Assembly (NCBI GenBank): GCA_037951105.1
Contig: JBAMJV010001370.1
Location: 1 to 64,000 of the forward strand
Direction: 5' to 3'
Source: Echinarachnius parma
Lineage: Eukaryota > Echinodermata > Echinoidea > Clypeasteroida > Echinarachniidae
DNA: 64,000 nt
In this document: positions 1-33,867 of the stretch, piece after piece
Numbering within the stretch: the stretch's first letter is position 1
Layout: every line of letters starts with the position of its first letter
Notes under the pieces: generated by a model
Told to the model about the DNA's origin: nothing
What the model saw: only the letters and a program-made list of their open reading frames with translations
The model's database searches: none
Translations under genes and position numbers: made by a program

Positions 1-9
1 AGATTCATT

Positions 10-55
10 TAATCCATATCGAGATCCCTAACCAACCCCCTTCAACATTTGTATA
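10..55 (+). repeat. Left terminal inverted repeat of element 1
   Basis: Perfect 46-base reverse complement of 5939-5984. The outer part (10-28) is followed by TA (29-30) and then by the family core end, which has a run of C followed by TTCAACATTTGTATA. The element at 11106 has the closely similar CTTTAACATATGTATA in the same place. Confidence 0.95.
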
Positions 56-2238
56 ATCCCTGACCCACACAAATAGCATACGGGAAGTATACTTACTGAC
101 TGGAGGAGGGGTCGGACAACGCAGACTACATCTACATAGGGCCAGCCGCCAGAACCGCCTCAGCAAGGACCGGGCCTCCGGCCACCACGTCTCGCCGATA
201 ACATGAGACGAACGCATTTGGCGACGCCCAGCAAGGAGCCCGTAGAACCTCGCCCAACAGGGGCTCCGTTAACGAGAGCCCACGAGTCGGCCATCGCCCG
301 GAACTCGTGGGCATGGACAAGTGACTAAAACAAGCGTATCATGTCCTGCTGCGAGAATCGCCAGCACCATTAACGAAGGGAAGCCCAGACGCGGCCATTG
401 CCCGGGTCTTGTGACCCCGGGCCGGCGGCTGGGCAAAAAACTGGGTTCCCAGTAATAAAAAGCCCCCTTGGACGGAAGGGGCCGACCACCACCCATCTCT
501 TACCAGCCCTGACCTAATGCTAACAAGGTGCGCCAGGTACTCCGCCTCGGGTCAGGGCCAACGCCAGCAGGAAGACCGGCAGGACCGGCTCCAGCCAAGG
601 GAGGCCCTCAACATAGGCTCAACCTGGAGCACGGACCAAGGCCTGAGAACACCGGTCGAGACCCAGGACGGTACCAGAGACCTGGAAGATGGGCGTCGTA
701 AACAAACCGCCTGCATGATTCGGGAACTAGGCTCTCGATGCAGTATAATTCAAATAAAATTATTAAGTTTGCAATTGGCAAGCATTTACCAAATACTTGC
801 ATTTCCTTTACCATAGGCAAAACAACAAATGAGCCATGTTCTGGCCCTCAAATTGCAAACTCCACCACTACAATACTAGCCAAATATTGTCACTATAAAC
901 CCATTCTCATATAAATAGAGCGCCATGACGAATACCGCAGATACACTGCTAATGTTAGTGCCATCAGTAATAGGCAACCTACATACATATTAGGTCACCT
1001 CAATCATGTGTATCACTATTTCATGTGAGCTACCCCACATAAGCCAGATAAATGACTCTCAAGGAATCTATTGTCCATTAAAACTTAATTGCCCCCCCGC
1101 AAATCATCCTGAAGACCGAGGGGAGAAGGAGCCATTGAGACGGGAGGAGACGGCCTCGCGTCCCCCCCGCCAGCTTATATCTGCAACGACCATGGGACTG
1201 TCGGGAACCCAACCCCGACCGACCGTCCCTGGAGGGGCGGAAGAAAAACCCCCCAAATATCCTGCATCTGGAACATTTGTAGGGACCGGATGGAGAAACG
1301 ACAACCGGCACTAGGACCACCAAGCTGATGAGGGGGCCGGGAACCTGCCAAGACTCCGCCGGAGCCAACAGCCTCATGCGTAGGCGACGGAAGGCATCTG
1401 AACCACCCGAAGGAATCACTCGTGACTTCAGCTCGATGATGAGGGACCTAGCGACCTGACCCAACTGAGTATCTCTGCAAGGAGCAGACGAAGTACGACC
1501 TCTGAAAAGAGAATATCCGGACTCCTCGAGATCGTGGGGGCCTGGCACCACCGACACCTGCCGAAAGGGGTCCCTGGAGAAGGACTTCAGGCCAAATGAG
1601 AAGGCCTCGGCACTGAACTGACCGCAACCCAACCTGGGAACCGAGAGACTGCCAACAGCCTAGGCGAACGGGGGCGTGGGGATGAATGGAAGACTCCATG
1701 CTGAAACAAGGGACATCTAGAACGGCAAAAAACCGAGATACAATATCAGCCGGGGAGCCTCGTACGCAAGGGAACCAACGACACCGGATCAGGTTTAGTT
1801 ACACAGCAACGGGGCTGAGGAAGAAGAAAACCCCGACTGTGTCCACGGAAAATTCAGTCCTCCCCCGGAAAACGAGGTATAGAACGTTGGGATACCAAGA
1901 TTGGCTAACCACCCTATCAAAGCCAAACTGTCTTAAATGCAATGGCCAACCCGCCATCCGTGCACACGAGCATTCGACTGAGAAAGGGGAATCGAACTGA
2001 TGAGTAACCGCCTTAACGAGGCTGACCCTATGATACAACTCCTTGTCCACAACATAAACAACGCCGATCGCGTGGCTTAAAACCAACAATGGCCCACTGG
2101 CCATCGCAACGGATCCCGGCGCATAACCCAGACCCACAGGCAACGTTATGCCCTGAGATCGGGCTCAAACCGGGCCGGATCCACACAGGCCTAGGGGAGA
2201 TAGTAGTAGACAACAAACAAGCCATAAGACAAGAGTCG

Positions 2239-2270
2239 TGGCGACCCTGCCAGGACGCAACCTAAAGCCC
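2239..2270 (-). pseudogene. Extra tRNA T-arm and acceptor 3' half ending in CCA
   Basis: Directly downstream of the Arg-like tRNA on the minus strand there is a second T-arm and acceptor strand, ending GGTCG then CCA (2239-2241). It closely matches the 3' half of the Arg-like sequence at 12015-12070. It looks like a tandem partial duplication of the tRNA 3' half. Confidence 0.5.
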
Positions 2271-2345
2271 TGGCGATCTCGTCCGAACACGAATCTGGAC
2301 CCGCCTGGTCCGCAAACAGATGCCTCATCCTGCAGCCTCGCGACC
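2271..2345 (-). pseudogene. tRNA-Arg(GCG)-like sequence with encoded CCA
   Basis: Read on the minus strand this is a full-length tRNA-shaped sequence of 72 bases plus a discriminator G and an encoded CCA (2271-2273). The acceptor arm has six of seven pairs including one wobble. The D-arm reads GGATGAGGC, as in Arg tRNAs, and the anticodon loop TTGCGGA gives anticodon GCG. The T loop reads TTCGTGT, with T where A58 is nearly universal. Position 26 is A where Arg tRNAs have G. Several stem mismatches suggest it is not a working tRNA. Animal nuclear tRNA genes normally lack CCA and use ACG for this arginine box, so this looks like a copy of a processed tRNA. A similar Arg-like sequence lies in the element at 11106-18179. 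Confidence 0.6.
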
Positions 2346-3076
2346 CTCACTCGACGAGGGAAGCGAAACCTCCACAAAAAATATAACTGTCCGGCGCCCC
2401 ACCTAGACGCCCGAAGGTAAAAACCAAAGGGAAGTCGGTGGGGGGGGGGGGGGGCACCGGCTCCCCCCCCACCCCACGGGACATGAGCAAGGACAGCGAT
2501 AAGGGGACCCGCCAGGGGTCGCGCGGGCACCCCGATAGGTCTACCGCGGACAGGGATCCCGGGGGAGCCAAAGGAACCAACGGAACCAAAGGAACCTACC
2601 CCGCGTAGGTGACTAAACACCCCGTGGCAAGTGACGCGCATCAACCCGTGCGTCAAAGGACATGCGGTCAAGACGACTATATCGAGAGAATTTTAATACA
2701 GCTCACAGCATGACCTACGTCTAGACGGGGCTCAAACCATACTCCCGCTCCTCAAGAATCAAATAGCATTCACTGAGAGCGACAGGAACTTATCCATATG
2801 CGTAACCAAAATTTAAATACAAGCCATAACATGGCTCCTTTCTTAATTAATTTACCGTGGCAATTATCAAAAATTACGCTAGCGTCTAATAGCCCGGGGC
2901 GACACCCTGGCTAGCGCACGGATCGATCCCAACTACCTAAAGTAACGGGATCTCCTGGAAGCCACATCATAAAATCTATTCCCTCATACATTGTCGCACT
3001 GTCATGAGCAACGAGTATGGGACAAACTTCAAATTTAACTCTAAATATATACACACCAAAGAACCATATCACATAA

Positions 3077-3151
3077 TGGTGACCCCAACGTGATGCGAAC
3101 ACGCAGTCTTCTGACCTGGAGTCAGAGGCGTTACCGCTGCGCCACGGCACC
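3077..3151 (-). pseudogene. tRNA-Trp(CCA)-like sequence with encoded 3' CCA
   Basis: On the minus strand this matches animal tRNA-Trp closely. The D-arm begins TGGCGCAGCGGTAACGC, the anticodon stem TCTGA/TCAGA is perfect around loop CTCCAGG (anticodon CCA), and the T stem is GCGTG/CACGT. The 3' strand TGGGGTC is followed by A73 and an encoded CCA (3077-3079). The 5' acceptor strand is degenerate, with one mismatch and three wobbles. The T loop is TTCGCAT, with C where A58 is expected, and position 26 is C instead of G. It is probably a pseudogene inside element 1. The encoded CCA points to a copy of mature tRNA. Confidence 0.75.
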
Positions 3152-3237
3152 CCGAAATGTACATCACATCCCCCTGTACCACAGCACCAGGGGGAGCGCC
3201 GACAGAACGGACGAAACAGCCGCAAGACTAAGAGTTC

Positions 3238-3830
3238 TTACCCACGGCCTGGTGGGAACTGGCCTACCGAGACCAGGTATCCGGGAATAAGCAGTAGCCC
3301 GTCCATCCTGGGTAGATATAACCAGCGTGGTATGGTCGTAAGCTGGACGACGCCCAGTAGGCTCCTGGATGCACTGCTGACCCACGTGCGTCAAAGGCCT
3401 CGGAACGAGCTGGCTACTCCTGCTTGTGAGAGGACTTATTGGTAAAGGTGAGAAGTGGCCCGGGGAATAAGATCTTTTACCGTGGCGAACCCCAGCTAGC
3501 TTTAATATAGCTTAATTATCTAAAGCTGGGGTTAGTCGGCCTTACCGTACCGCCTGCGACTTACAACCGGGGATAGCACCTAGGCTGGCGCAACGGTCCC
3601 GGGCCCTGCAGTGATAGGGGGACCGTCTTCAGGATCACCCTACAAACCTTAAGCCAAGGGATCACCTGGGTGCTACAACATAGCCTCGCCCAACCGTGAG
3701 GCGCGAAAGGCAAAACGGGAGTGAAAATCCATTCCCCCTGGTCCCAACTCAACTCGAACCGGGGGAAGAAACCCGGCCTCAATCGCCCTGACTCGCGATC
3801 CTCGCTACCCGAGGCCAACGAGAGGGCAGC
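3238..3830 (+). repeat. Internal direct repeat of element 1, copy A
   Basis: About 590 bases that recur at 4388-4889. Shared landmarks are a TTACCC start, a block around GATAGGGGGACCGTCTTCAG, a block around CACCTGGGTGC, CCGTGAGGCGCGAA, and a CCGGGGGAAG block near the end. No open frame is conserved between copies, so the repeat is probably noncoding. Confidence 0.75.
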
Positions 3831-3867
3831 ACAAGACCTAGCTTAGATACCACACACAACAAACTCA

Positions 3868-4003
3868 CCTGGGTGTTACATACATTTTCTTGCCCACCTG
3901 TGTGGCAGAACGGAGTTCCAAAAAAACCCATACCCCCCCGGTCCCAACACACAGCGAACCGGGGGAAGGGAACCCGGCAACAAATCTCTGAGCCTAGCCC
4001 CCC
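3868..4003 (+). repeat. Internal direct repeat of element 1, partial copy
   Basis: Matches only the 3' part of the large direct repeat (ACCTGGGTGTTACA, CCCACCTGTG, ACCGGGGGAAGGGAACCCGG). It lies between copies A and B. Confidence 0.55.
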
Positions 4004-4387
4004 CGCGGGGCTGCGGCGCGGAACGAGACACCCCCCCCATCTCGGGGGGGGGGGGGGGGGGGGGGAGCGCTGCTGCAAAGGCCCCCTCCGAGGGGGCCGC
4101 GCTATCAATAACACGAAAAAACGGCCGAAGCGCTAATTAGATTTCCACCACCGTGGTACTCAACTCGGTCACATTCCTATCGGTTTCTAACAATTCTATC
4201 AACTACTGACAACAATCCCAATTGTGTTAACTGACCCCGAGGCCCAGTGCTACCACCGAGAGAGGGGCTAGTAATAAGGAAGTGACAACAATAATACAAA
4301 TCTAGACGATGCAGGTTTGAGACCTGAAATATCATACCGCTTGTCAGCCTGATAAGCGGTTTACTCTAAGCGAAGGAATCACGTCAT

Positions 4388-4889
4388 GGGACTTACCCCT
4401 GGTCCAGAGGGGACTGGCCTCCCTCGGTCAGGAATCCCGGGAGAAGAAGTCACTCGTCCATGCTGGGTGCGACGTTTCGAGTGCACCGGGCGCGGTGTCC
4501 CGCGCCCGTCAAAAGCTATGGAAAGAGCGGACTTACCCGGCTTGCGAGAGGACTTACGTGTGCGGTGAGAAATGGCCCGAGTCTTGAACTGCTCACCGTG
4601 GCCAAAGCCGGACATCATAGGCGAATTACAACCAGGGACAGCACCCCGGCTGACGCCACGATCCCCGGGCCCTACGATGATAGGGGGACCGTCTTCAGGG
4701 GACCCTACTAACCTCTAGCCATAGGATACCCCTGGGTGCCACAGCTACTGCTTCGCCCACCCGTGAGGCGCGAATTAGTAGAACGGGATTCTAAATTTGG
4801 TTCCCCCGGAACCGACTCATTGAACGACCCGGGGGAAGGGAACCCGGCCTCAAACTCCCCGTCTCGTGGCCCTCGCCGGACGAGACCGA
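4388..4889 (+). repeat. Internal direct repeat of element 1, copy B
   Basis: Second large copy of the repeat at 3238-3830, shorter but with the same order of blocks. A T-arm-like hairpin and a second hairpin lie just upstream (about 4312-4365), and G/C and A/T homopolymer runs follow downstream. Confidence 0.75.
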
Positions 4890-5853
4890 CAAGACGTCCT
4901 CCCAACCATCATCCGATGTCATACCTAGATGCACAAAGGAACAAGGTAAAGAAAAAACAAAGGAAAAAAAAAGGAGGTTAACATCCCCCCCATAAACACT
5001 CAATTATTTTTTTTTTTTGTCCCTTCGCGGGCACCCCCGCACTTTTTTTTTTTTTTTTTTTTTTGAAGTGTGGGGGTGGGGGGGGGGGGGGGAAAGGGGA
5101 AGGGGGCGGAGGGCCAACAACCCCGACGCCACCTCCCCCCAACACATGTTTCAAACCATGGTGACCCCGACGAGGCACCACCCCCCCTCAACAAAACAAA
5201 GGCCAAAAGGACAAGCCCCGACCACGAGGTCGAGCCAGCACACACCACAACAAAGCCATAAAAACAAAATGGCGGGAATGCAAGAATACAAACATGACAT
5301 CAAAAATAAAAAGTAAAAACTTTCAACATCATTCATGAATCGAGCACAACGCCTCCGAAATGATTGACGGCCATAGAAAGAAAGGAAGCAACATTATACA
5401 CGAGCCAAGACGCAAGGCCCCCCGAACGAGGGGGCCTAGCAAGCCCAAAAAAATCAATCTTATACATGACCCGAGGTATAGAGCCCCGAGAAAAAAATTT
5501 AACTGGGAGTGAAAACTCGGACCGAATCTCGCCCGTAACTCCGGGGGAACACTCCCACAGCGAGCCGTCCGAAAATTCACGCATGCGTCATTTTCTTAAC
5601 CACCAACGGAGCGCCAGAAAAACCTAACAAAAAGCTCCGAAAATGGTCTCAATATCGCTTCTGACAAGGTCCAAGGACTTACAAATCAAAATAGGGTTAT
5701 TGCGCTACACTGATAGATAGAAAAGGAACGGTCTTACTTTAGTTGTAGACTGCTACGAAAATTCTTAGAATCAAATGCAAGAGCGCGATTTCTAGCGTGA
5801 CTGTCTCTAAGGCGTCGCAAATTGAAAGAGGACAATTATGGCCCAGCGCCGGG

Positions 5854-5861
5854 TATATATA
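5854..5861 (+). promoter_or_regulatory. Possible TATA box near right end of element 1
   Basis: TATATATA in a GC-rich setting, 70-80 bases inside the right inverted repeat. It is symmetrical and could serve either strand. A CAAAATGGCGG motif resembling a YY1 site lies further in at about 5265. No gene is seen downstream, so promoter activity is conjecture. Confidence 0.2.
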
Positions 5862-5938
5862 GGTGGTGTAGTCTCGGTCCAAGGCAGTTTCTTTTTAGGG
5901 TGGTTTTTGGCGAGTTGTTTTCTGTGCATCCAAATGGA

Positions 5939-5984
5939 TATACAAATGTTGAAGGGGGTTGGTTAGGGATCTCGATATGGATTA
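5939..5984 (-). repeat. Right terminal inverted repeat of element 1
   Basis: Exact reverse complement of bases 10-55. It is followed directly by AT-rich intron sequence that leads into the receptor exon beginning at 6146. Confidence 0.95.
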
Positions 5985-6145
5985 CACGTTTAACTTACCA
6001 TGTGTTAAATGGAAAGGTTATGGTTAGGGTTTAATAGTCAATCCAGCACACAGAGTGTACATTTCCACTCCAAAGGAAGCATTCCGGCCAGGTGCCTCAT
6101 AGGCACACACATTACTATCACCACCAATGAGGTTATTAAACTTAC

Positions 6146-6337
6146 CATTCCGGAGATGGAAGGGGTATCATCCGGTTTCAGCATCATGCCCTCCGTGGTG
6201 AAGTGGTACTGGAGAGCGGTCTTCAGCTGCTCCGAGGTACAGTTGATGTGCTTGTCGTCAGCGTCGTACCAGTTGTCCGGGTACCAACCGATTAAGAACC
6301 AAACGATCTTGGGGCCGTACAGGTTCTGTTTGTAGAC
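6146..6337 (-). CDS. GABBR1: GABA-B receptor (GABBR1-type) ligand-binding domain exon, 4th of 4 seen
   Basis: A 192-base phase-0 exon of 64 codons, read right to left. It encodes VYKQNLYGPKIVWFLIGWYP, then continues through INCTSEQLK and FTTEGMMLKP to SISGM. This matches the lower lobe of the Venus-flytrap domain of metabotropic GABA-B receptors, where family members read VYK..LYG.KYVWFLIGWYADNW and TTE.VMLNP. The tryptophan of GWYPDNW corresponds to the GABA-contacting Trp278 of human GB1b. The acceptor is CCCATCAG before GTC, and the donor is ATG followed by GTAAGTT. The codon junction with the 19.5-kb exon is exact (TGT GAG, then GTC TAC). The receptor is a class C G-protein-coupled plasma membrane protein. 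The next exons would lie left of base 1, beyond element 1, which sits in the downstream intron. Two decayed copies of this exon follow at 6444-6566 and 6724-6825. Confidence 0.93.
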
Positions 6338-6443
6338 CTGATGGGAATGAAAATAGTAAACACAAAGACATTAGATAGTCACATAATCAATAGTCACTTC
6401 GATCATACGTCAGTTTAGCTGCTCTGATATGGCGGTCTGATAT

Positions 6444-6566
6444 GGCGGTCTTCAGCTGCTCCGAGGTACAGTTGATGTGCTTGTTGATAGCATCGTACCA
6501 ATTGTCTGGGTACCAACCGATCAGGAACCAAACAATCTTGGGGCCGTTCAGGTTATGTTTGTAGTC
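6444..6566 (-). pseudogene. Truncated duplicate of the 6.2-kb GABA-B exon
   Basis: The minus strand again encodes this exon's first two thirds, with IVWFLIGWYPDNWYDAINKH and INCTSEQLKTA still in frame, preceded by an AG acceptor. The homology then stops without a matching donor, and a small duplication of ATATGGCGGTCTG lies at the break. The frame has no stop within the homologous part. It could be a recent partial duplicate or a rarely used alternative exon; without a donor it is most likely not spliced in. Confidence 0.8.
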
Positions 6567-6723
6567 CTAGTGACAAAAATATCAAACTCAAAAGTAAACA
6601 CATCAAAATTTCAAACTATTTTTCATAAAATAACAGAAGTTTTAGGTGATTTTAAGTAACCTGGTGAAAAAAAAATACAAAGACAAAATTAGATTTTCAT
6701 ATTATTGTTCATAAATTAATTTA

Positions 6724-6825
6724 GTTGATGTGCTTTATATTATCAGTGTTGTACCAGTTGTCCAAGTACCAACCTTCTAAGAGCAAAACAATGTATTATG
6801 GGGCTGCACAGGTTTGTTTGTAGAC
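6724..6825 (-). pseudogene. Second, older duplicate of the 6.2-kb GABA-B exon
   Basis: More diverged copy: the minus strand starts with CAG then GTCTACAAACA and retains GGTTGGTAC and GACAACTGGTAC, but has several stops and indels. The intron sequence that follows each copy is also shared, so whole units of about 230-260 bp were duplicated. A trace of a fourth unit lies near 6880-6960. Confidence 0.7.
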
Positions 6826-7013
6826 CTGGCAGTCATAAAAACAAAGTATTAAACACAAAATAATACACATCAGATTTTCAAATTGTTGTTCATAAAATTA
6901 TTCACGAATACTATAAAAGCTTAGCTGCTCTAATATGCGATTGATGAATCTGTGTAAATAGTTATTTCTAGGCTCCCTTGTTGTCATAAAGTTCCATTTC
7001 CAGTACTCTGCAT

Positions 7014-7438
7014 TTAAAGGGGACCACCAAGCAAATAACAACACATAATTATATGTTTTGGTACCGTTTTGTGATATCAAATAGATACCCAACATTTTGC
7101 AAAGGGTTGTTTAATTCATAAACAATGCAATTAATTACCACCACTTACGGAACCATTATTATTTCATGGTTTCGTACGCGCCAAATATTTGCGAGTGCGC
7201 CAATTCTATTCACGCGTACGTTTGGAGACAATAGAATCCCGGACGATTCATTCACTCTGGACAAAGGTAGTCTTTGTACATGCAGACCCATGAACACATG
7301 CTTTAGTGGTGATGCGTGTTCCAATTATATATTTTTTCTTCTGGAACATATTTTGTTGAACTTGTTGATGGAATGGACTACTAAAGATGTTACCTTTCAT
7401 TTATAAGAATATTATTTTGGGGTGGTGGTACCCTTTAA
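7014..7438. mobile_element. Short inverted-repeat element, TTAA-ended
   Basis: Termini TTAAAGGGGACCACCA and TGGTGGTACCCTTTAA are inverted. Length 425 bases, no coding capacity seen. A relative with ends TTAAAGGGAGCCAACA is at 52903-53455, and both share GGAATGGACTACTA near the right end. Likely a non-autonomous element with a TTAA target. Confidence 0.65.
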
Positions 7439-7628
7439 GCTCTGAACTAGATCAGTAAGTCAATGTAGCACAAGGATAGACGGGTCATAGAGTATAATGG
7501 TGTTGTGACGGTAATATGACGAGTTGGCAGGAAGTTTGCTCCAATATAGGTTCATGTGTGACATTCCTATTATGTGTGCTTACAGGAACAAATTAGATAA
7601 GATTAGATTCTGGTAATAATGAAGGTGC

Positions 7629-7852
7629 TGGTGGTTGTGATGGTGATGGTGATGGTGATGGTGATGGTGATGGTGATGGTGATGGTGATGGTGATGGTGA
7701 TGGTGATGGTGATGGTGATGGTGATGGTGATGGTGATGGTGATGGTGATGGTGATGGTGATGGTGATCTAGTGTTTTTGGTGGTGGTGGTGGTGGTGGTG
7801 GTGGTGGTGGTGGTGGTGGTGGTGGTGGTGGTGGTGGTGGTGGTGGTGGTGG
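7629..7852 (+). repeat. Simple repeats (GATGGT)n and (GGT)n
   Basis: About 140 bases of a six-base GATGGT repeat, then about 75 bases of GGT. Any histidine-, proline- or valine-rich frame across it is an artefact of the repeat. Confidence 0.95.
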
Positions 7853-7853
7853 T

Positions 7854-7925
7854 GTTAACCCTTTGCCTACCGGAACCTGGTGGGTCCTGTATTTACTCTT
7901 TGGAGATTGCAAAATCTAGTAGGGG
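7854..7925 (+). repeat. TTAACCC mini-repeat
   Basis: A member of the short family that begins TTAACCCATTGCCTAC, contains GGAACCTGGTGGG and a GGGGATTGCAAAATC-like block, and ends GGGAACAGGTTAA. Here the right end is degraded. Confidence 0.7.
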
Positions 7926-8271
7926 AACAGAATCACAAAATGTTTTTTGTTTTTTTCAAATCTGTAGCGGATATGAACATATTTTGATCTGTGACATCAT
8001 TTTGGGGCAACTTTCTGATCATAAACATTTATAGGCAGAATCCATTTTTTTGGTTAAATTAATTGAATATCACAATTTATCTCCCAATTTTTATTGTTGC
8101 AAATAATCAAAGAATTCATATTTGTTGAAATGTGCTCAGTCAGAATCAACGCATTTAATTCTTTCCTGCCAACTGCAGGTGATAGATCAAGAAAATTACA
8201 AATGCCTCTACAAATCATGAGAGGATTTGAACATATTTAGATTTCAAAATGATATAGACCCTATATCATAT

Positions 8272-9478
8272 ATGCAGAGAATTGTGTCTCTTCTAATAAG
8301 TCCATAATTAAGTCTTTACAGATAGTAGACGTAGAAGAAAGTAATAACAAAAGTAATTAGCAGTACTCATGAAAAACATAATAAAATAGGAAGAAAAAAT
8401 TCCTTAGATAATGAATTGTGAAGAAGAAAAAAATACAATTAATCGTGGAGAATTGAATCACGTCCTATTAATAATTAATAATAATTGTCCATTTTGATAT
8501 AGTGCTTTATTGCAGTTAAGTCTCAAAGCGCTCGGAGCATTATTACCTGGGCTTTAGCCGAGCAGCCTTATTCAATCGCTCAAGCATTTCAAGGAATATA
8601 TTCCTGCCAAGTACCCATTTACTGCACCTGGGTTGAGAGCAGCAAATGTGGATAAGGTGTCTTGCTGAAGGACACACGTGCCGCGGCTGGGAATCGAACC
8701 CACGACCTTCATATTTAAAGACGAAGGCTCGAACCAATATACCACGACACTCCCACTAATGAGCCTATAGAACGATTGAAAGGAAATGTAGTGTAATTTG
8801 CAATGTACAACGGTGAAATTATCCATATGACCTTAAATGAACGCAGATGTGTGGTGAACTGAGGCTCTTCTAATACGTCCATTATGGTGATTAAGTCTTT
8901 ATAGATAACAAAGAAAAAAGTAATAACAAAAGTAATAAGCAGTATTCATAAGAACCATAGCAATGTAGGAATAACACATTTATAACATAATGCATTATGG
9001 AGAAGATGACCAAACCATAAATTAATCGTGGCGAATTGAATCGTGTCCTAATGAGCTTTTAGAAAGATGGATAGGAAATGTGGATGGTGTTTATGCTTTG
9101 TGAACAACAGTGAATTAATCAGCAATGACCTTAAATGAACACGTATGTGAGAAGAATATGTCCATTATGGTGATTAAGTCTTTATAGAAAACAAAGAAAA
9201 AAGTAATAACAAAATTAATAAGCAGTATCATAAGAACCATAGCAACGTAGGAATAACACATTTATAACATAATGCATTATGGAGAAGATGACCAAACCAT
9301 AAATTAATCGTGGCGAATTGAATCGTGTCCTAATGAGCTTTTAGAAAGATGGAAAGGAAATGTGGATGGTGTTTATGCTTTGTGAACAACAGTGAATTAA
9401 TCAGCAATGACCTTAAATGAACACGTATGTGAGAAGAATATGTCCATTATGGTGATTAAGTCTTTATAGAAAACAAAG
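8272..9478 (+). repeat. Tandem repeat of about 275-292 bp
   Basis: Landmark TGTCCATTATGGTGATTAAG occurs near 8876, 9148 and 9440, with nearly identical units between. An older, diverged unit starts near 8290 and is split by a SINE. Nothing coding is visible. Confidence 0.85.
8470..8754 (-). mobile_element. tRNA-headed SINE
   Basis: On the minus strand the head (from 8754) has an RNA polymerase III B box, GGGTTCGATTCCC, and a tRNA-like A-box region. A middle domain follows with CTTCAGCAAGACACCTTATC. The tail contains CGCTTTGAGACTTAACTGC and AATAAAGCACTATAT, resembling L2/CR1-type LINE 3' ends used by many SINEs of marine deuterostomes. It splits one unit of the surrounding tandem repeat. Target duplications are too eroded to state exactly. 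Confidence 0.85.
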
Positions 9479-9499
9479 ATCTGAATTGTCAATATCAAG

Positions 9500-9610
9500 T
9501 TAGATGTCACTCTGTGTGATATCCAACGTTCTGACAAACTCCTCATTGTATAGCAAGGCCCGAGCTTCTTTAGCGGAGAAGGTTGTTTTCCGAGACATGG
9601 ACGCAGCCAT
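9500..9610 (-). CDS. Small ORF or possible first exon, 36 codons
   Basis: On the minus strand, AAGATGGCTGCGTCC gives a strong start context followed by 36 codons (MAASMSRKTTFSAKEARALL and on to TQSDI) and a stop. The ATG context resembles a YY1-type start region of housekeeping genes. I recognise no family. It lies inside the large intron of the GABA-B gene, so it could be a nested gene's first exon, a transposon leader or chance. Confidence 0.2.
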   Translation of the reverse strand: MAASMSRKTTFSAKEARALLYNEEFVRTLDITQSDI

Positions 9611-10822
9611 CTTAGCTAAGATCGACTGCGCAGAGTTTGGAAGTTGCTACACACCGATGCGTGTCAACCGGATTTTCTCAATTATTTTCAATAGGACCAT
9701 ACACTTTTCTATGCCGATCTCTACAGTAGACAACTTATACAATATGCACACTCAATATTAGCACGGTAAACCATATACCTGAGATACTATAGCACCTGTA
9801 AAACGCACGGGCGGTTAGGGGCGGTTTAGGGAGTAATAGGAAAGGCGGTCCCGGGCGGTCCCGGGCGGTTCAGGGACTAATAGGTTAAAAGACAATATCT
9901 TGTATTGAAAGGCAGGTGTCAGTGAAATGCACAAGTTTTTTGTTCTAATCTTTGGATCGAAAGAAAAACTCTTTAATGACAAATGAAAAACAGACAAAAT
10001 CTGTCAAAAAGACTGTACATGTATATCAGGTGAAGCATTCAGCTGAAATATATATGCTACATTATATGGCAATTTTCTTTTTATCCTCTGAAGTAAGGAA
10101 CAAAATGTGGTTATTTTAACGGAAAAGAGAAAAATCCTTTTATCCCATGAATTATTCAGCTAACGCATGTCTTTCCTTGTTTGCACTGAAACAGAATAAC
10201 AAGCATTAAAACCTGTTTTGCTCGCAAGTTTCCGCGAAAAACGGGAAAGCCTGACAAATCAAATGATGTTGCAGTGTGCAGTCAATGGCACTTGACACCC
10301 ACTCTGCGGTGAGAAGCACATAACATATTAATGCACACATGGGACTAGCAACAGTTTTTAGTGGTTTTTCTCTCTCTCTTGTTCACATCCATTGTGGCTA
10401 TTTCACAGTATCTTTTTTTAAAACCATCACTTCTGCTGCTGAATTTAAATCCAATCAGTAATGTGAGATAAAATGTGTTGTGTACATGTACATAAGGGTA
10501 ACTAAGTGACATTTTGTGGTTTAGAAACCACACACACAAACGCACACATGGGATTAGAAGTTTTTGTTGTTGTAATATCTACTCAATTCTTATAAAGCTA
10601 TATAGATACAATTGCAAATTGTACACTTTGTTTTGTCCATCCATCAATGCCATTTATACTAACTTACTGTTACTTTCTCTCAATCTAAAATTGATTTGTC
10701 AGTAATGAGAATAAGAGTTGTGTATATACTATGCGATAAACTCGTACTTCAATTTATAGTGGGGCCCTTTTGGGCAGTTAAAGGGCTTAAATCAGACGGA
10801 TCCCCCATGCGTTTATTGCATT
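9611..10822. other. Intronic stretch, nothing recognised
   Basis: AT-rich sequence. There is a short GGGCGGTCCC triplication near 9810-9870 and a weak direct repeat around CACACATGGGA (10336 and 10545). No gene seen. Confidence 0.6.
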
Positions 10823-11109
10823 GATTAGATGAATCATTAGTGATTTCATTATTCATTAAAGATTAGTACCTGCCCCCTTTAACATATGTATATTCTCTGA
10901 ATGTACAGAAAAGCCTTTCGCTAAAAACACCCCTTTTTTAAAGTGCCTTGGCCCAAGCCCCCAAGCCCTTCACTCCCTCTACGACGAGATCTGGCCAATC
11001 ATCATAAAATAAGCGAATCCCTCGACGCGGGGAGGACGGGAGGGTACTTATAAAGGGGGCAGGTACTAATCTTTAATGGATAATGAAATCACTAATGATT
11101 CATCTAATC
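10823..11109. repeat. Palindrome split by a small element
   Basis: Bases 10823-10863 and 11069-11109 are inverted copies of each other (41 bp, one mismatch). With one TA between them they would form an 84-bp near-perfect hairpin. A 201-bp insert with TA on both sides interrupts it exactly at the centre. The right end overlaps the left palindrome arm of the large element starting at 11106. Confidence 0.85.
10866..11066. mobile_element. 201-bp deletion derivative of element 2
   Basis: Ends GTACCTGCCCCCTTT and AAAGGGGGCAGGTAC are inverted, and TA flanks both sides. Bases 10866-11005 are identical, as far as I can read, to the reverse complement of 18022-18161, the right end of the large element 2. 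It therefore looks like an internally deleted, non-autonomous copy mobilised by the same machinery. Confidence 0.85.
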
Positions 11110-11150
11110 CAGTACAAGATCTAGTACCTGCCCCCTTTAACATATGTATA
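11106..11150 (+). repeat. Left terminal inverted repeat of element 2
   Basis: Exact reverse complement of 18135-18179. It comprises a 16-base outer arm, TA, then GTACCTGCCCCCTTTAACAT and ATGTATA. The outer arm also resembles that of element 1 (both begin AATCCA and contain AGATC). Confidence 0.95.
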
Positions 11151-12014
11151 ATAACACAGACCAACACCCAACACAGTAAGACAATTACTGTGAGGGGGAG
11201 GGGTCGAGAACACCGCAATGCGGACCCAGCAGCCAGCGCTGCCACAGCAACGTCAACCTACTAGCTACCATGTCACGGAGAACCAAGAAAGGGAGGCATA
11301 GGATGAAGCCCAGAAGGCGGTCCCCAGGGACCCTCCACCGGCACTCCGGCGAAGGGGTCCAGGAAACCGCGACCGTCCCTGCATCATGGACACGAAACGA
11401 CGGCAGGGCCAAGGCCTAACCCGGCACAACCACTTCACATGCGGCCCGGGCACCTCAACCTATCGACTCAGACCGACGAAAACGCCGGCACACGGCATGC
11501 AAGACGGCACTAGACGACGAGAAGGAGGCCGGCAAGAAAGGAGGCCTGCACGACGCGAGAAATCAAACTCGCTCGAGAAACCCTTGAGCACGGCCCCGGA
11601 GGCCGACCAATAGCACCTGAACGACGCTCAGGATGCCCTCGTCGAAAAGCTCAAACAACAAACCAGCTATCTCTGCTACAGAAGCAACGGAGAAGCTAAT
11701 GACGCATCACTTCTTGAAGCGTAATAACCGAGAGTCGTACGACCGCCAGGCAACTCCCTAGAGGAGGGCAAACAAGCTCTGCCGCTCGGGCAGAGAGTCC
11801 ACCCTGCACTGCCGGCTGCCGAACAGCGGCCACAACGCTAAGAGCAGGCAACGAGGCCGGGGATGGCCTCCCCGACAATGGCCAAACCATCAGACCAGGC
11901 CGCAGGGCAAGAGACAGACTAAAACAATCCTCGAGCCCCCCAAGCGTAACCTTCCCTGGCGATGAAAAATAAAAAAAGGCACCCTATTGACTCACAATAG
12001 AGCGCTACCTAAAG

Positions 12015-12070
12015 TGGCGACCTTGCCAGGACGCGAACCTGGAGTCCCTGATTCGCAGTCAGATGTCTTA
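12015..12070 (-). pseudogene. tRNA-Arg(GCG)-like 3' two thirds with encoded CCA
   Basis: The minus strand has the anticodon arm TCTGA-CTGCGAA-TCAGG (anticodon GCG) and a perfect T stem CCAGG/CCTGG around TTCGCGT. It continues with the acceptor strand, discriminator G and an encoded CCA (12015-12017). The T-arm is nearly that of animal tRNA-Arg(ACG), except that A58 is C. Position 26 is A instead of G. The 5' acceptor and most of the D-arm are missing. Confidence 0.65.
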
Positions 12071-12071
12071 A

Positions 12072-12150
12072 AGAGATTGAGAGAGGGTTGAACTCGAGAC
12101 CCTGAGTGACTGAGTCAAGGTCGCTATCCAATACACTACACAGTATGTCA
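12072..12150 (-). pseudogene. Degenerate tRNA-like sequence, isotype unclear
   Basis: Upstream of the Arg-like fragment on the minus strand there is a D-arm-like run (TAGTGTATTGGATAGCG) and a B-box-like GAGTTCAACCC. Spacing is compatible with a tRNA, but the anticodon stem pairs poorly and there is no CCA. It may be a tRNA relic fused to the Arg-like one. Confidence 0.35.
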
Positions 12151-14109
12151 CCCTATCCATAGGGCAACAAGGCCACGCACCCTCTCACCACTGCGAAACG
12201 GAACTAGCGCCCAAAACTACCTGCTCGATGTCGGCCAATTAAGGACGCAACGGCAGCAACAACACTGGAGGCGACACCCAACACCATCATGGCAAAGGGC
12301 GGTAGTGAGAACTACCCAAACCTGAGACATATCGGTGTCAACAACATACTGCAAATACTCAACCAAAATTTGGAAACCAAGCAACATAAACGCTTGCCCG
12401 ACTCCATTGCATCCCAAGAAACTATCGACAATAAGCCACTGAGAACATAAGGATGAGAGTTGAGTCGTTCAGACTAACGCAAAAGTCCCCTGGAAAACCC
12501 CACTGTCCCATCGAACGATCAAGGGAGTGGGAATAACAATGCCCACAATCATCTACTCTTCCACAAGGCCAGGGATGCCGATGGGGGAACCCCCTAAACG
12601 GCTACTTCCACGAGAAACACCGGACCCGCGCCATGAAATCAGAGTATCCATGGCAGGGCCAGGAAAGTCGCAAGATAACGCGAACGGAAACGACAACGGG
12701 AAGAAAAGCCTCCCCGCAGGCGTGACCTAGCAAATGACACTAGGACTAGACCTATCTCTCTCCTAGCCACTGCGCGGGAGAGAGCTACGCGCCCGACGGA
12801 AGCAGACAATTGTCATGCATAAACAATCGGCACGACATAACAATCCCGCCCTAGCTAGCCCGCTGGCGCGGCCGCGGGCCGGGGCGGGAAGCACAAGTGA
12901 ACCGTCGCTATAGCGAGCCCTAGATCGCGGGCGGCATGGCCAACCGATCGCCGGGGCCGCAACCCTAACGACCGTCAGCGCGGGAAGGTCCCGACAACAT
13001 CACAGTCATAAAACAAAAGAATCTGAAGCTCCAAAAATGTAACCGGAGCTCAAATCAAGGGCCCCAACTCCTCGCCTGCGCGGCCAGGGCCCCATAAATT
13101 CAATGAGCTAATAAACAAGTGAATCCAGAGCTCCACAATTATAAATAAACGGAGCTCACGACCATATTGCCTTGGATTCGGCCTAGAGTCCAAACACGTA
13201 TAGCACTGTGTCAAGGATCCTACTGCCGGGCACTAAAATTTAACGACACACCAAGCGTTAAATGCCTCTTACACAAAGTGAAAATAAAACAAGCAGCTGC
13301 ATAAAACCACATTCAATATAGCAATATATTCAACAATTCACCACAACACCAGCCCTATAGACCACTCACCGACCGCCACGGAGGGTAGAATAACATTGAC
13401 CAACGCTCCCGAACGTTCCAGATGCTACAAAAGCATCATAAAAAATCCATCATACCTCACGGATGTACACCGCGCATCGACGGAAACGGATGCCAGCGTC
13501 GCGCCATATTGAAGACTAAAACCCAACAAGCCGCATGATGGCGCTACATATTGTCCCGATGATCTAGCATCGGGCAAATGTCCTCAGGAAAGAACCACTC
13601 GATCCCCGAACCGAACGAGGCACTGCATCCAGGCCACCGCGGCGCCGATCGCGCCGCTCGTCGTGAAAACAATCACGCACCACAACCTCCGCAGTCCCGC
13701 TAAAGCACGGGAAGGGCTCAAATGGGCTGACACGAGCCCGAGAAACAAATCAAGGGCCCTGTCGTATACATAAACTATGCACAACCCAAACGTCGGTCAG
13801 AAGTACTATAACGTACCGCCGACGAAACTGGCGTAGGACCATATATCGTCGCGGAAGGAACTCGCGAAAGACAATCAAAGCCCGAAACTAGCCAGGCAAG
13901 CATATCATTCACAGCGTGCTGAAGTCAACCGACCTGCCCGACACGGCGACAAAAAAGAACCACTATAGAATTGCGGCCATACCCCAAAACTATATCCAGC
14001 CGCCCAAGACGCCTTCTTTGTTATCATGTTAACACCGAATAAAAATAAATCAATTCGATAAACATAGGCACCCATATGCTCCCGCATACCTAAATACAAA
14101 AACAACCGT

Positions 14110-14460
14110 ATCTATATATTACTCCCCGCAGAGGGCGGCTAAAGAGAAAAGGGGGAACATTGATCACCCCTTAATAACCATGTTCATACTAAATGAGCAT
14201 ATCCAATTCAATGAACATTATGCAAACGTACAAACATATACACTTATATCTCTATATTTCTCCAGCTCACCCAGGAGGGGCCGCTTAAGAGAAACCGCTT
14301 AGGGGAAAGGGGGGAACATTGTTCGGTCCTTTACAACCATGTTCATACTAAATGAGCATATCCAAATCAATGAACAATACACATACGTAAAACATATACA
14401 CTAATATCTCTGTATTTCTCCTGCTCCCCTAAAGAGGGGCCGCTTAGGAGAAAACGGAGC
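14110..14460 (+). repeat. Tandem repeat of about 150 bp in element 2
   Basis: Two full units and part of a third. Landmarks are ACCATGTTCATACTAAATGA twice and GGGGCCGCTTA-like blocks with GGGGGAACATTG. Noncoding as far as I can see. Confidence 0.8.
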
Positions 14461-14551
14461 AATGTTCGCACCGACGAGAAAAACCCTCCCTTCGACTTCG
14501 AATAGCCAGAGGATCTCCCGCGGCCAGGGGGTAACAATCAAGTAATTCACG

Positions 14552-14625
14552 TGGAGAGGCATCCGGAGCTACACCGGGGACCTCCAGATCTGCAGTCGAA
14601 AGCTCAACCACTGAGCTTAATTCCC
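14552..14625 (-). pseudogene. tRNA-Cys(GCA)-like sequence with encoded CCA
   Basis: The minus strand contains AGCTCAGTGGTTGAGC, then GACTGCAGATC (anticodon GCA), GGAGGTCCCCGG, a T loop TGTAGCT and CCGGATGCCTC. U73 and an encoded CCA (14552-14554) follow. This matches animal tRNA-Cys base for base through the D-arm and variable region. The 5' acceptor strand no longer pairs well, and A58 is replaced by G. Confidence 0.75.
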
Positions 14626-14705
14626 CCCACCATGCCTACATCGACAGAAGTCAATCACATAGCTGAACACTGCAGGGGGGACCCCTTAAGTATAAACAAA
14701 TTATA

Positions 14706-14758
14706 ACAGGGGACATCCGGATCTACCCGGGGGCCTCTCGACCTGCCGTCGAAGCTGA
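14706..14758 (-). pseudogene. Second tRNA-Cys-like fragment
   Basis: About 80 bases further left on the minus strand, after the first Cys-like sequence, a shorter copy retains AGCTTCGACGGCAGGTCGAG, with a paired anticodon stem and GCA preserved, then GGCCCCCGGGTAGATCCGGAT. The A-box half is lost and no CCA is visible. The flanking DNA is also partly repeated, so it looks like a local duplicate. Confidence 0.55.
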
Positions 14759-17342
14759 CCCCCCCTGAATCCGCTGCCCGTGAAAACACACGAACGAGAC
14801 TGCACACGACTCGAACACCCCACCACGAGGGGTACGGCCCAGACAGAGCCAGCACCCGACGTCGATGACGGACTTCCAACTCATCAGCCCTGGCTGCGAT
14901 GCTCTGAAACGATGCCGGAAACACCGACAACCGAAGAGCGAACGCGCCGTCACCGAGACAAGAGACCAGCAACGATCTCCTCCTCGAAGGCCTGCGCACA
15001 AACGGTCACCCCGACAGGGCCCACCGAAGCAGCCAGGGTCAACAGCACCGGGGAGTCGGTCCCACAAAAAACGACCACGATCGCTTGACTGAAATGGCAA
15101 GGCCGTCGACCGCCCGCCCTCGGGAGCTAAGTCGCGGAGCCTCAGCGATCCTCCCCAGCTACTGCCTCGCATTCCTGCGCCACTGGAAATAAACGAGCGG
15201 GGGGGGGGGGGGGGGGGGGCGGAGCCACACCCCTATTGGCGTCCGTCCGCCCCACGGATCTACTGATCCAATGAATATGAATCTATCAACATCATACTAA
15301 AACATTTTAATGTAGACCCAACGTTCATATTCAATAATACTAGGCAACGTTCCATAAGCGTTAATAGCTATCTGGGCCCCCGCCCCGAAGACAAACAGGC
15401 ATGAGGTACGCCCCAGACAAGCAGAACCTGAGCCGCAGGCCACAGGGGGCAAGCCACAGTGGGGAAGCCACCGTGGACAAGCCCGGCCGACGCTGGCAAC
15501 TCGGCATCCGCCGCAGTCGCAAGAAGTCCGAATGGATACGCCCTGAGCGAGGCCGCGCCTAAACAGGGGAAGCCGCGACCAGGGGAACCAGGGGACACCG
15601 GCACACCCCCCATCGGAGCACCGGAGGCCCGGGCCAACGGTCCCTCCGCCTTATCTTGGGACCGAAGACCACCCCTCAGCGTCAAAAGCTAAAGACCGGG
15701 CAGAACTCTAGGTTCAGAGGGGTATAGCACAGCGAACCGCGAGCCCGCCTAGGCTTAAACATCTTTAAGAAGCAAGGCAGGCTGGGCACAGGCCGGCCCG
15801 GTCTCGCAACTACCACCCGCAACACGGGGGTGAGACGCTCGAAACCACGTGAAATGATGCCATTCCATAAATCCAGCTGACAACGACAAGAGAGCAGGGA
15901 AAAGGTAGAAGGTAACAAATCCCCAACTCCCCCGCCAGGAACAGCAACCCAACTGAATCCATAGGATTCCACAAGACCGCCATCGCGGTCGGGCATCGGT
16001 ACACACCACATCGGCAAGCCAGGTCTGAAGTCCATGATAGGCACGCCCAAAAGAAAAGCCTGCCTACACGGGACTTAACTCTGAAAAAGGAAAAAAGAAG
16101 CGATTTGTATAGCGCCTAACATGATCGATAACCATCTTAAGACTCTCACAAAAAGGAGCTAACAGACCCACTACCACAACAAGGGATAGCCGACCCACAA
16201 GGGGGGGGGGGGCCCCCCTTGGGCGTATACAAATCCCAGGCGCCGCCCCGCCTGACGGCGCCCAGGACGCACATCTCGATCTGAAGGGGAAGGCGGGAGG
16301 AGGGGGGTCGCCGCCCCCCCCACCCCCCCTACATGCATAATTCGGAAGTCGGAGCACGGGCCAATGGGACGCGCGACGACAACCGCTACATATCGGACAT
16401 GAAATACTGGACAGGGTGCCCGCGGCAACATGGACTGCACAAAAGAAACACCCCACGAATGCCCCGAGAACCGGGGGGAGTTGGTCCGCAACCCCCCCCC
16501 CCTACCCGAAGGGAGCGAACTACCCATCTATTCTTCTCTAATAAATGCACGGCCTCCCGGTGGGCTCAATCCGAACCAGAGGTCTAGGACTTGAAACGAA
16601 GTTCCCTGCTTATAAAAATGATTCCGACTACAATATTTGGGGGAAGGGGGCAGAGAGCACCGAATGCGGCTCCGCCCCCTAAGTGCGAACTTTAAAGAGA
16701 CCTGCGCCCTAAAGCCGGCTCAATAAACACACAACGGAACCCGCTAAACTGCAAGCAAACAAAGGCTAACATGCACTACCAAACGCACTACATGAATAAC
16801 CAAATAAGGGGGAGGAGGCCAGAAGGTACTATTTCAACCCGTGACCCCCCCAGCAGTAAAGGTAAACTTCCAAAGGAAGAGCACTAACGTAAATCCACCT
16901 TCCCAAAAAAACAACAAGGACCTACGCGCGAGTGCTAACGTCCTTGCAAACGTGCTCAAACCAACAGAGAGAACACGAAACACAAGGAACGAGGGCCCGG
17001 AGCCAGCAAAAAAAATTTTTTTTTTTTTTTTTTCACAACACCCCAGGGCCAAGCCCCCACCCCCCAAGGGGGGGGGGGGGGAGGGGGGGGAGGGGGGGGA
17101 AGGGCCCGAGCCCCACCCCCCCCCCCCCCGGCCGACACCCGAATCCAGAAAAAAAAAAAAACAAACACAAGAGAGGCAAGGGAGGTTAAAATACCCCTGC
17201 ACCGTGGAAAACGGGAAACGGGAGGAACAATAAACATCTCATTTAATAAAATAGACAATCAAAGCTTCCTCAGTCACACAATAATTATAAGGGGCAAAGT
17301 CACGCACAAACTAAAACCCCGACAATAACACCGTGCGAAAAC

Positions 17343-17370
17343 AAAATGGCCGCCCGGCGCTGACGTGGCA
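17343..17370 (+). promoter_or_regulatory. YY1-like plus CRE/UPR-like motif pair, copy 1
   Basis: AAAATGGCCGCC (YY1-like) is followed by TGACGTGGCA (CRE or XBP1/ATF6-type site) nine bases after the first motif starts to diverge. The same arrangement recurs 336 bases downstream. It suggests a promoter-like module, but no transcript or gene can be assigned. Confidence 0.3.
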
Positions 17371-17678
17371 AAAAACCAAACGCCAACGGGAGGCCGATCC
17401 TCCGAGCGCACCCGCTGAGTAACGGCGGAGAATCTTTTCAAAAATACGCCCGGAGCGCCCGATTCACGGGGCCAAAATTAAACTATAAAACGGCTGCCGG
17501 AACGGACAACAAATTCATTCAAAACAAAGTAGAGGTAATGCTCGAAGTGAAAGGATACAAAACATGTAAACAAAGTATTTTCACAAAGTAAACAATCAAA
17601 TCTTCCACAGCCACACAATAATCAGAAGGGGTAAAGCAACACACGAGCTAAAACCCCAACTATAACAACACCAAATTC

Positions 17679-17706
17679 AAAATGGCCGCCCGACGCTGAC
17701 GTGGCA
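17679..17706 (+). promoter_or_regulatory. YY1-like plus CRE/UPR-like motif pair, copy 2
   Basis: Both motifs are retained exactly (AAAATGGCCGCC and TGACGTGGCA) at the same spacing as copy 1, although flanking bases have diverged. Confidence 0.3.
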
Positions 17707-18134
17707 AAAACCACCCGTCAACAAGAGGCAAACCCTCCGAACGCACCCCCAGAGTTCTGGGGGGAAATTTTTCAAAATACGCTCGGATCGCCCGTTTCAC
17801 GGGGCCAAAAACAGAAAGCCAAACGGCTACAAAAAGGCCGCCGAAACGGACAACAAACCCTTAAAAAAAAACGGGCCAAGGCTCTAAATAAGGCAGGGAT
17901 GATGCTCGAAGTGAAAAAGGATACAAAAGTGTAGATTTCACTGCAACTTCAGAAGATTGAAAGTCCAAAACGAGAGCTCCAAAAAAAACACGTCAGGCTA
18001 GACTGATGATTCGCGAAAAAGATGATGATTGGCCAGATCTCGTCGTAGAGGGAGTGAAGGGCTTGGGGGCTTGGGCCAAGGCACTTTAAAAAAGGGGTGT
18101 TTTTAGCGAAAGGCTTTTCTGTACATTCAGAGAA

Positions 18135-18179
18135 TATACATATGTTAAAGGGGGCAGGTACTAGATCTTGTACTGGATT
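18135..18179 (-). repeat. Right terminal inverted repeat of element 2
   Basis: Exact reverse complement of 11106-11150. The adjacent 140 bases of the core are duplicated in the 201-bp derivative at 10866-11066. Confidence 0.95.
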
Positions 18180-33627: not shown

Positions 33628-33867
33628 TCTCTTCTCTTCTCTTCTCTTCTCTTCTCTTCTCTTCTCTTCTCTTCTCTTCTCTTCTCTTCTCTTCTCTTCT
33701 CTTCTCTTCTCTTCTCTTCTCTTCTCTTCTCTTCTCTTCTCTTCTCTTCTCTTCTCTTCTCTTCTCTTCTCTTCTCTTCTCTTCTCTTCTCTTCTCTTCT
33801 CTTCTCTTCTCTTCTCTTCTCTTCTCTTCTCTTCTCTTCTCTTCTCTTCTCTTCTCTTCTCTTCTCT
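33628..33867 (+). repeat. (TTCTC)n simple repeat
   Basis: About 240 bases of a pure five-base repeat. The long KRREE frame on the minus strand is an artefact. Confidence 0.97.

What the first reader, a model, noticed from the sequence alone, without database searches (positions are those of the whole stretch)
2239..14625. tRNA relics in both elements look like reverse-transcribed mature tRNAs
Seen: Arg-like (2271-2345, 12015-12070), Trp-like (3077-3151) and Cys-like (14552-14625) sequences each end with a correctly placed discriminator and CCA; an extra Arg 3' half (2239-2270) also ends in CCA. Both Arg anticodons are GCG, while the T-arm resembles tRNA-Arg(ACG). Position 58, normally A, is T, C, C and G. 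Position 26, normally G in Arg and Trp, is A, A and C. Known: animal nuclear tRNA genes lack CCA, A34 of tRNA-Arg(ACG) becomes inosine (copied as G), and m1A58 and m2,2G26 cause miscopying by reverse transcriptases. Inference: the relics came from tRNA cDNA captured by DNA elements. Pseudogene drift could explain single sites but less easily the combination.
Basis: partly seen in the sequence, partly recalled or inferred. Interest (0 to 1): 0.92.

Follow-up and report, generated by a model that had tools for sequence, protein, structure and literature searches.

The report
Mature tRNAs captured by DIRS-type retrotransposons
Two mobile elements in this animal genome, non-coding members of the DIRS group of retrotransposons, carry old copies of finished tRNA molecules, with the CCA tail added after transcription and with changes at chemically modified bases, which suggests that reverse transcriptase swept cellular tRNAs into them.

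Summary
Of the host genes read, Trp and Cys lack CCA (0 of 20, 0 of 11); 2 of 15 Arg loci have it, both with A58 intact. CCA is fixed across the element copies read. A58 differs in all three or four inferred captures; A34 is G in both full Arg relics. In the two least altered captures only 2 (Cys) and 4 (e2 Arg) differences from the host gene look ancestral; they include A58 both times, and A34 in Arg.
Two corrections. Host Arg and Cys have A26, so the position-26 argument holds only for Trp; G37 is unchanged and G9 mostly so. And the 'DNA elements' have the anatomy of DIRS1-like retrotransposons: inverted ends of about 172 bp, an internal region complementary to both termini joined, a 3' extension, no target duplication. 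A sister element codes for reverse transcriptase, RNase H and probably a tyrosine recombinase. Best reading: mature tRNAs were copied from their CCA ends during reverse transcription. The switching step is inferred.

The parts
1..5982 (-). e1: non-coding DIRS1-like element; its 3' end is cut off by the contig start (17 other copies measured are 4.8-6.5 kb)
   Evidence: 20 copies fetched; ends and lengths; anatomy on copy L014
1..53 (.). e1 internal complementary region, partial; 10-53 is the exact complement of the 5' terminus 5939-5982
5811..5982 (-). e1 5' inverted terminal repeat (about 172 bp, by analogy with copy L014)
   Evidence: ITR identity 164/173 in L014
2239..2270 (-). tRNA-Arg 3' half ending in CCA; the full Arg relic's CCA abuts it
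   Evidence: 31 positions, 5 changes against a host Arg gene
2271..2345 (-). tRNA-Arg relic, anticodon GCG, T58, CCA
3077..3151 (-). tRNA-Trp relic, C26, C58, CCA
   Evidence: CCA in 10 of 10 copies L098-L107 and in L097
1099..1161 (-). decayed RNase H stretch
   Evidence: tblastn with the sister's protein, 62% over 21 aa, E 3e-4
1446..1693 (-). decayed reverse transcriptase stretch
   Evidence: tblastn 37% and 65%, E 2e-7
3209..4970 (-). stretches like the sister's first ORF, which has no Pfam match (4391-4970 at 75-93%; 3209-3801 at 32-41%)
10826..18178 (-). e2: non-coding DIRS1-like element, 7353 bp
   Evidence: e2-type complementary region also on C136, C760, C1930, C2971, C3013, C4027, C4729 (twice), C5239 among the 100 places listed of 144
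10826..10850 (.). e2 3' extension
   Evidence: ITR begins at element position 26
10851..11019 (.). e2 3' inverted terminal repeat
   Evidence: 161/171 identical to the inverted 5' end
11051..11150 (.). e2 internal complementary region: complement of the 3' end joined to complement of the 5' end
   Evidence: 59 nt at 98% and 44 nt exact; pattern 144 hits in the genome, 0 in control
18008..18178 (.). e2 5' inverted terminal repeat
12015..12122 (-). tRNA-Arg relic (3' part 12015-12070, 5' acceptor strand 12116-12122, D-arm replaced by other sequence), G34, C58, CCA
   Evidence: of 8 e2 copies read only L077 (C760) keeps the whole tRNA
14552..14626 (-). tRNA-Cys relic 1, G58, CCA
   Evidence: CCA in 10 of 10 fetched copies
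14704..14766 (-). tRNA-Cys relic 2 (D-arm deleted), G58, ends GTT instead of CCA
   Evidence: GTT in 10 of 10 fetched copies

Best explanation
e1 and e2 are non-coding members of a DIRS1-like (tyrosine-recombinase) retrotransposon group; e1 at least moved recently. While their RNA was being reverse-transcribed, the enzyme switched onto the CCA 3' ends of mature tRNAs (Arg, Trp, Cys), copied them and returned to the element RNA. Copying across modified bases fixed errors: a base other than A at m1A58, G at inosine 34. Shown: DIRS1-like anatomy; a sister element with RT and RNase H and, less strongly, YR domains; relics all in the sense of the sister's ORFs; no CCA in the host Trp and Cys genes read; A58 already changed before the compared copies of each capture split. 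Inferred: that the DIRS enzyme did it, that it did so by template switching, that the changes date from the copying event, and that the host tRNAs bear these modifications.
For: Host genes: the 3 nt after the discriminator are CCA in 0 of 20 distinct Trp contexts (one is cut at a locus edge and may repeat another), 0 of 11 Cys contexts and 2 of 15 Arg contexts. CCA in the relics: Trp 10 of 10 copies L098-L107 plus L097, e2 Arg 8 of 8, Cys1 10 of 10. Shared, hence early, changes: Cys1 and Cys2 share only C56T and A58G (26 is altered in both, differently); e2 Arg (window and L077, 54 positions) A34G, one deletion, T47C, A58C; Trp (e1 and L097) 9 changes including G26C and A58C; Arg e1 half 5 of 31 including A58C. 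Chance that 58 is in all four sets: 5e-5, or 4e-4 to 1e-3 if A is 2-3 times as mutable; with A34 in Arg 3e-6, 4e-5, 1e-4. Leaving out the e1 Arg half (product of the same call's other three figures): about 3e-4 to 3e-3. DIRS anatomy: against passages of PMC3266345. Sister element on C468: RVT_1 E 4.6e-21 and RT_RNaseH 7.7e-6, above their cut-offs; Phage_integrase 2.9e-5 and its N-terminal partner 0.0017, both below their curated cut-offs but in order in one open frame. Recent mutations among e1 copies are strand-asymmetric (chi2 31.7, 6 df, p 2e-5). In zebrafish m1A58 is found in nearly all tRNAs and inosine is read as G (passages of PMC11417395).
Against: G37 is unchanged in Trp and Cys, and G9 in Trp and e1 Arg; if modified in this host they should show miscopying too. 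Cys2 has no CCA. One gene-like Arg locus (L113) and one Arg pseudogene (L122) carry CCA. A is the base most often changed in the relics (29 of 70 against 51 of 281 others, human references). Early changes may still postdate capture. The e1 and e2 Arg relics differ in isodecoder type by one acceptor base only, so they may not be independent; that leaves three captures. One shared orientation of four is 1 in 8 by chance. No sister copy lacking a tRNA at the same point was found, so no capture junction was seen. The one sister element examined carries no relic.
Confidence: 0.7

Rival explanations
1. A LINE-type reverse transcriptase inserted mature tRNA copies into genomic copies of the DIRS elements, which then spread. 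The relics are still tRNA cDNA, but the DIRS enzyme was not involved.
For: Explains CCA and the changes at 58 and 34 equally well.
Against: No direct repeats or tails beside the relics by eye in L075, L077, L097 and the window. Three or four captures in 13 kb of element and none in the other 50 kb of the window, apart from one SINE-like repeat without CCA. All in one orientation. The CCA of the full e1 Arg abuts the Arg half with nothing between.
Confidence: 0.16
2. Ordinary tRNA genes were captured as DNA and then drifted; CCA arose by chance or came from host loci with CCA, and A58 was lost because this strand loses A.
For: A is the most changed base; 2 of 15 Arg contexts have CCA; the strand is A-poor along both elements.
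Against: It needs CCA by chance in several isotypes, and A58 in every early set although only 2 to 9 sites changed. Host Trp and Cys contexts read have no CCA.
Confidence: 0.1
3. The tRNA sequences serve the element (as tRNA-like structures or Pol III control sequences) and were selected rather than caught by accident.
For: CCA stays fixed over the copies read; more than one relic per element.
Against: The structures are decayed (Cys 18 bits in Rfam, below cut-off; no tRNA match for e1 Arg); 7 of 8 further e2 copies have lost the Arg D-arm. The e1 copies compared are about 98% alike, so fixation is weak evidence.
Confidence: 0.04

Closest known systems
DIRS1-like retrotransposons (PMC3266345, passages seen)
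   Same: Inverted terminal repeats, paired internal complementary regions at the 3' end meeting at the circle junction, right extension, no target duplication; sister codes RT and RNase H and probably the tyrosine recombinase.
   Different: Window copies are non-coding and carry mature tRNA sequences; no methyltransferase match in the sister. The overview's main text has no occurrence of tRNA, primer or priming.
Neurospora Mauriceville/Varkud plasmids (recalled, not read)
   Same: A reverse transcriptase that starts at CCA-type 3' ends and takes mitochondrial tRNA sequence into the plasmid.
   Different: Mitochondrial plasmids with another kind of RT; here nuclear animal elements with a tyrosine-recombinase plan.
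tRNA-derived SINEs and tRNA retropseudogenes (recalled)
   Same: tRNA-like sequence spread by reverse transcription.
   Different: Here the tRNA is a passenger inside a 6-7 kb element with its own ends; a tRNA-like repeat in this window at 8666-8745 keeps A58 and has no CCA (read, found).

Membership tests
DIRS1-like retrotransposon | inverted terminal repeats | tested here: met
   164/173 (L014) and 161/171 (e2) identical
DIRS1-like retrotransposon | internal complementary regions matching both termini and joined at the circle junction, near the 3' end | tested here: met
   exact 55 nt + 44 nt in L014; 59 nt at 98% + 44 nt exact in e2; 144 genome hits of the pattern, 0 of the control
DIRS1-like retrotransposon | extension at the right (3') end | tested here: met
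   24 nt (L014) and 25 nt (e2)
DIRS1-like retrotransposon | no target site duplication | tested here: met
   in 17 of 17 e1 copies with both flanks at most 1 base is repeated at the junctions; shared 5-mers in 2 pairs (L024, L028) against 1.8 in shuffled pairs. Empty sites themselves were not seen: that search did not complete
DIRS1-like retrotransposon | integration next to a short sequence matching the junction | tested here: met
   element ends in GAT; host triplet before the other end AAT 8, GAT 7, other 3 of 18
DIRS1-like retrotransposon | reverse transcriptase and RNase H genes | tested here: met
   in the sister element on C468; window copies non-coding with decayed traces in e1
DIRS1-like retrotransposon | tyrosine recombinase gene | tested here: inconclusive
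   sister on C468: PF00589 24.3 bits (cut-off 27.1) and PF02899 19 bits (cut-off 22.3), in order in one open frame; no PDB match
DIRS1-like retrotransposon | methyltransferase domain | tested here: inconclusive
   no such Pfam match at E up to 1 in the three minus frames of L055, L108 and L095; no positive control was run, and L109 was scanned in one frame only
   the e1 repeat is internal in the 18 of 20 copies that have it; no duplication; no transposase domain in the ORFs and minus frames scanned
reverse-transcribed mature tRNA | CCA not encoded in the source genes | tested here: met
   Trp 0/20 and Cys 0/11 contexts; for Arg 2/15 contexts have CCA
reverse-transcribed mature tRNA | early changes at modified sites | tested here: inconclusive
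   58 changed in 4 of 4 captures, 34 in 2 of 2 full Arg relics, G26 in 1 of 1 (Trp); G37 in 0 of 2, G9 in 1 of 3 (only L077)

The most novel reading that the evidence does not exclude
DIRS-type reverse transcriptases enter RNA templates at mature tRNA 3' ends and can jump CCA to CCA (a full Arg abutting an Arg half), so tRNAs are regular participants in DIRS replication, perhaps tied to its priming step, and these elements preserve a fossil record of tRNA modification in the germ line.
Probability: 0.35. Interest if true: 0.85.

Novelty: new variant of a known kind. Interest (0 to 1): 0.66.

Why it matters
How DIRS elements start reverse transcription is, as far as I recall, not settled; captured tRNAs with intact CCA ends show which RNA ends the enzyme can use. 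Early changes at A58 and A34 would be genomic traces of tRNA modifications. The elements are also a case of non-coding retrotransposon lineages that decayed almost beyond recognition yet kept moving.

Tried and rejected
DNA-transposon reading of the inverted repeats (rejected by copies whose left ends lie further out). G26 as general evidence (rejected: host Arg and Cys have A26). A34/A58 as mere A-loss (weakened by the early-change sets, not excluded). Viral contig scan with the end motif: no match. Rfam scans for other captured RNAs in the elements: only tRNA matches looked credible; the others were far below their cut-offs. Pfam scans of 10 window ORFs and of the minus frames of both elements: nothing above a cut-off. 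PDB search of the YR frame: none. An e2 copy holding an e1 insertion as stand-in for an empty site: left side aligns, right side too weak to use. Nine paper searches listed no report of tRNA capture by DIRS elements: (listings only; passages seen of PMC3266345 and of PMC11417395; one search found no occurrence of its terms). The position test with recalled human tRNAs is superseded by host genes. In one search only the best 40 of 111 candidates were scored, so the 20 copies L009-L028 are biased to an intact Trp relic (20 of 20 identical over 81 bp, not used as evidence); L098-L107 were taken from elements not among those 40. Of the host matches I read 20 of 24 Trp loci, 6 of 47 Cys loci (with their neighbours) and 18 stretches from 86 Arg-query matches.
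Full report
What is there. The two elements hold six tRNA-like stretches, all on the minus strand. Trp 3077-3151 is found by ARAGORN and Rfam. Local alignment to 24 recalled human tRNAs gave 102.5 (Trp), 92.5 (Cys), 62.5 (second Cys), 60 (e2 Arg) and 48.5 (e1 Arg), against a best of 44 in six shuffled elements. With host genes the scores are 108, 96, 69.5, 88 and 59.5. The rest of the window (50 kb) gave one tRNA-like repeat at 8666-8745 and nothing right of 18179 at a score of 46 or more. The second Cys relic was not in the finding and ends in GTT.

The elements. Twenty copies of e1 show that its left end lies beyond the contig start: a conserved stretch precedes the supposed inverted repeat in all 18 of 20 copies in which that repeat was found. 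In copy L014 the region at 226-324 is the exact complement of the 3' terminus (55 nt) joined to the exact complement of the 5' terminus (44 nt); the ends are 164/173 inverted repeats, with a 24-nt extension on the 3' side. e2 (10826-18178) has the same plan, with 59 nt at 98% and 44 nt exact. This is the plan of DIRS1-like retrotransposons as described in PMC3266345 (passages). The pattern of the joined region has 144 hits in the genome and none in the control. The host triplet next to the left end is AAT or GAT in 15 of 18 copies, and the element ends in GAT. No target duplication: at most one base is repeated in 17 of 17 copies, and shared 5-mers (2 pairs, one of them a 6-mer in L024) are no more than in shuffled pairs (1.8).

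The coding sister. Of 20 further places beside that motif, three (L050, L051, L055) are about 83% like e1 over the first 370 bp. The one on C468 was read further: it is 94-95% like e1 over e1 4388-5018 and 5004-5982 and largely unlike it in the middle. There, on the window's minus strand, it carries RVT_1 (E 4.6e-21) and RNase H (7.7e-6), both above cut-off, and, in another frame open over 466 residues of L108 and on through the match in L055, Phage_integrase (2.9e-5) after a SAM-like N-terminal match (0.0017), both below their curated cut-offs. No methyltransferase was seen, without a positive control. No tRNA relic scored 42 or more in it. tblastn finds decayed RT and RNase H stretches and two copies of the first ORF in e1, in the same order. 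So e1 looks like a decayed, non-coding but young family: eight copies are 98-99% like the window copy over most of 3 kb, and older relatives of 91-94% exist. For e2 the coding traces are weak (best E 0.004).

Host genes. Trp: 20 distinct contexts, none with CCA. Cys: 11, none. Arg(ACG) type: 15 contexts read by the pattern, 2 with CCA: L113, one base from the ACA of two loci on another contig, and L122, a pseudogene without its anticodon, whose CCA lies in a flanking imperfect inverted repeat. Both keep A58. Arg genes have A26 and A37, Cys A26.

Changes. Against host genes: window Trp 11 changes, window Cys1 14, e2 Arg 5 in 54 positions, e1 Arg full 25, half 5 in 31. Older relatives show what is shared. 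Cys1 and Cys2 of L075 share only C56T and A58G; the D-arm of Cys2 is deleted, so that part cannot be compared, and 26 is altered in both but differently. e2 Arg (window and L077): A34G, one deletion, T47C, A58C. Trp (window and L097): nine, among them G26C, A58C and T47C, the last also seen in host genes. The e1 half and the e2 Arg end like different isodecoders (CAGGGTCG and CAAGGTCG), a one-base difference, so their independence is likely but not proven; the full e1 Arg scores about equally with both (59.5 and 56). Chance of 58 in all four sets is 5e-5, rising to 1e-3 if A is three times as mutable; without the e1 half the product of the other three figures is 3e-4 to 3e-3. Against: G37 unchanged in Trp and Cys; G9 unchanged in Trp and e1 Arg and changed only in L077.

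Mutation. Singletons in 12 pieces of 17-21 sequences (5053 columns) are strand-asymmetric: A>G 38 against T>C 9, T>A 14 against A>T 5, A>C 20 against T>G 3, C>G 9 against G>C 0 on the plus strand; C>T 24 against G>A 26 and C>A 10 against G>T 8 are not. This fits copying through a single-stranded intermediate. The spectrum's stationary state (A 0.27, T 0.22, with wide limits) explains the T-poor plus strand of the elements only in part.

Mechanism. Minus-strand synthesis on element RNA, a switch to the CCA end of a tRNA, read-through of modified bases and return would give sense-oriented tRNAs with CCA and early errors at 58 and 34. The Arg pair, where the CCA of a full tRNA abuts a tRNA half, fits a CCA jump after an abortive copy, though tandem duplication is possible. 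Zebrafish data show m1A58 in nearly all tRNAs, m1G9 and m1G37 in many, and inosine read as G (passages of PMC11417395). Neither the switch nor the host's own modifications were observed.

Noticed in passing
window 8666-8745, minus: tRNA-like (Arg/Thr-like) repeat between the elements, probably a SINE; A58 kept, no CCA.
   Followed up: partly
L128 (C1414:306000-307600): Arg pseudogene with deleted anticodon, flanked by an imperfect inverted repeat of about 38 bp per arm.
   Followed up: partly
L019 (C3621:142338-149648): An e1 copy inserted into an older e2 relative.
   Followed up: partly
window 1-5982 and 10826-18178: Both elements are T-poor on the plus strand (AT skew +0.25 and +0.35) with CpG at 0.84-0.91 of expectation against 0.51-0.63 around them.
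   Followed up: partly
e1 2486-2605: About 120 bp present once in the window copy and apparently in tandem in other copies (blast pattern).
   Followed up: no
C6248 (Trp), C10129 and C4046 (Cys), C11823 and C11011 (Arg): Clusters of many tRNA gene copies on single contigs.
   Followed up: no
window 7630-7850 and 33630-33870: Long microsatellites (GATGGT and GGT; CTTCT), read.
   Followed up: no
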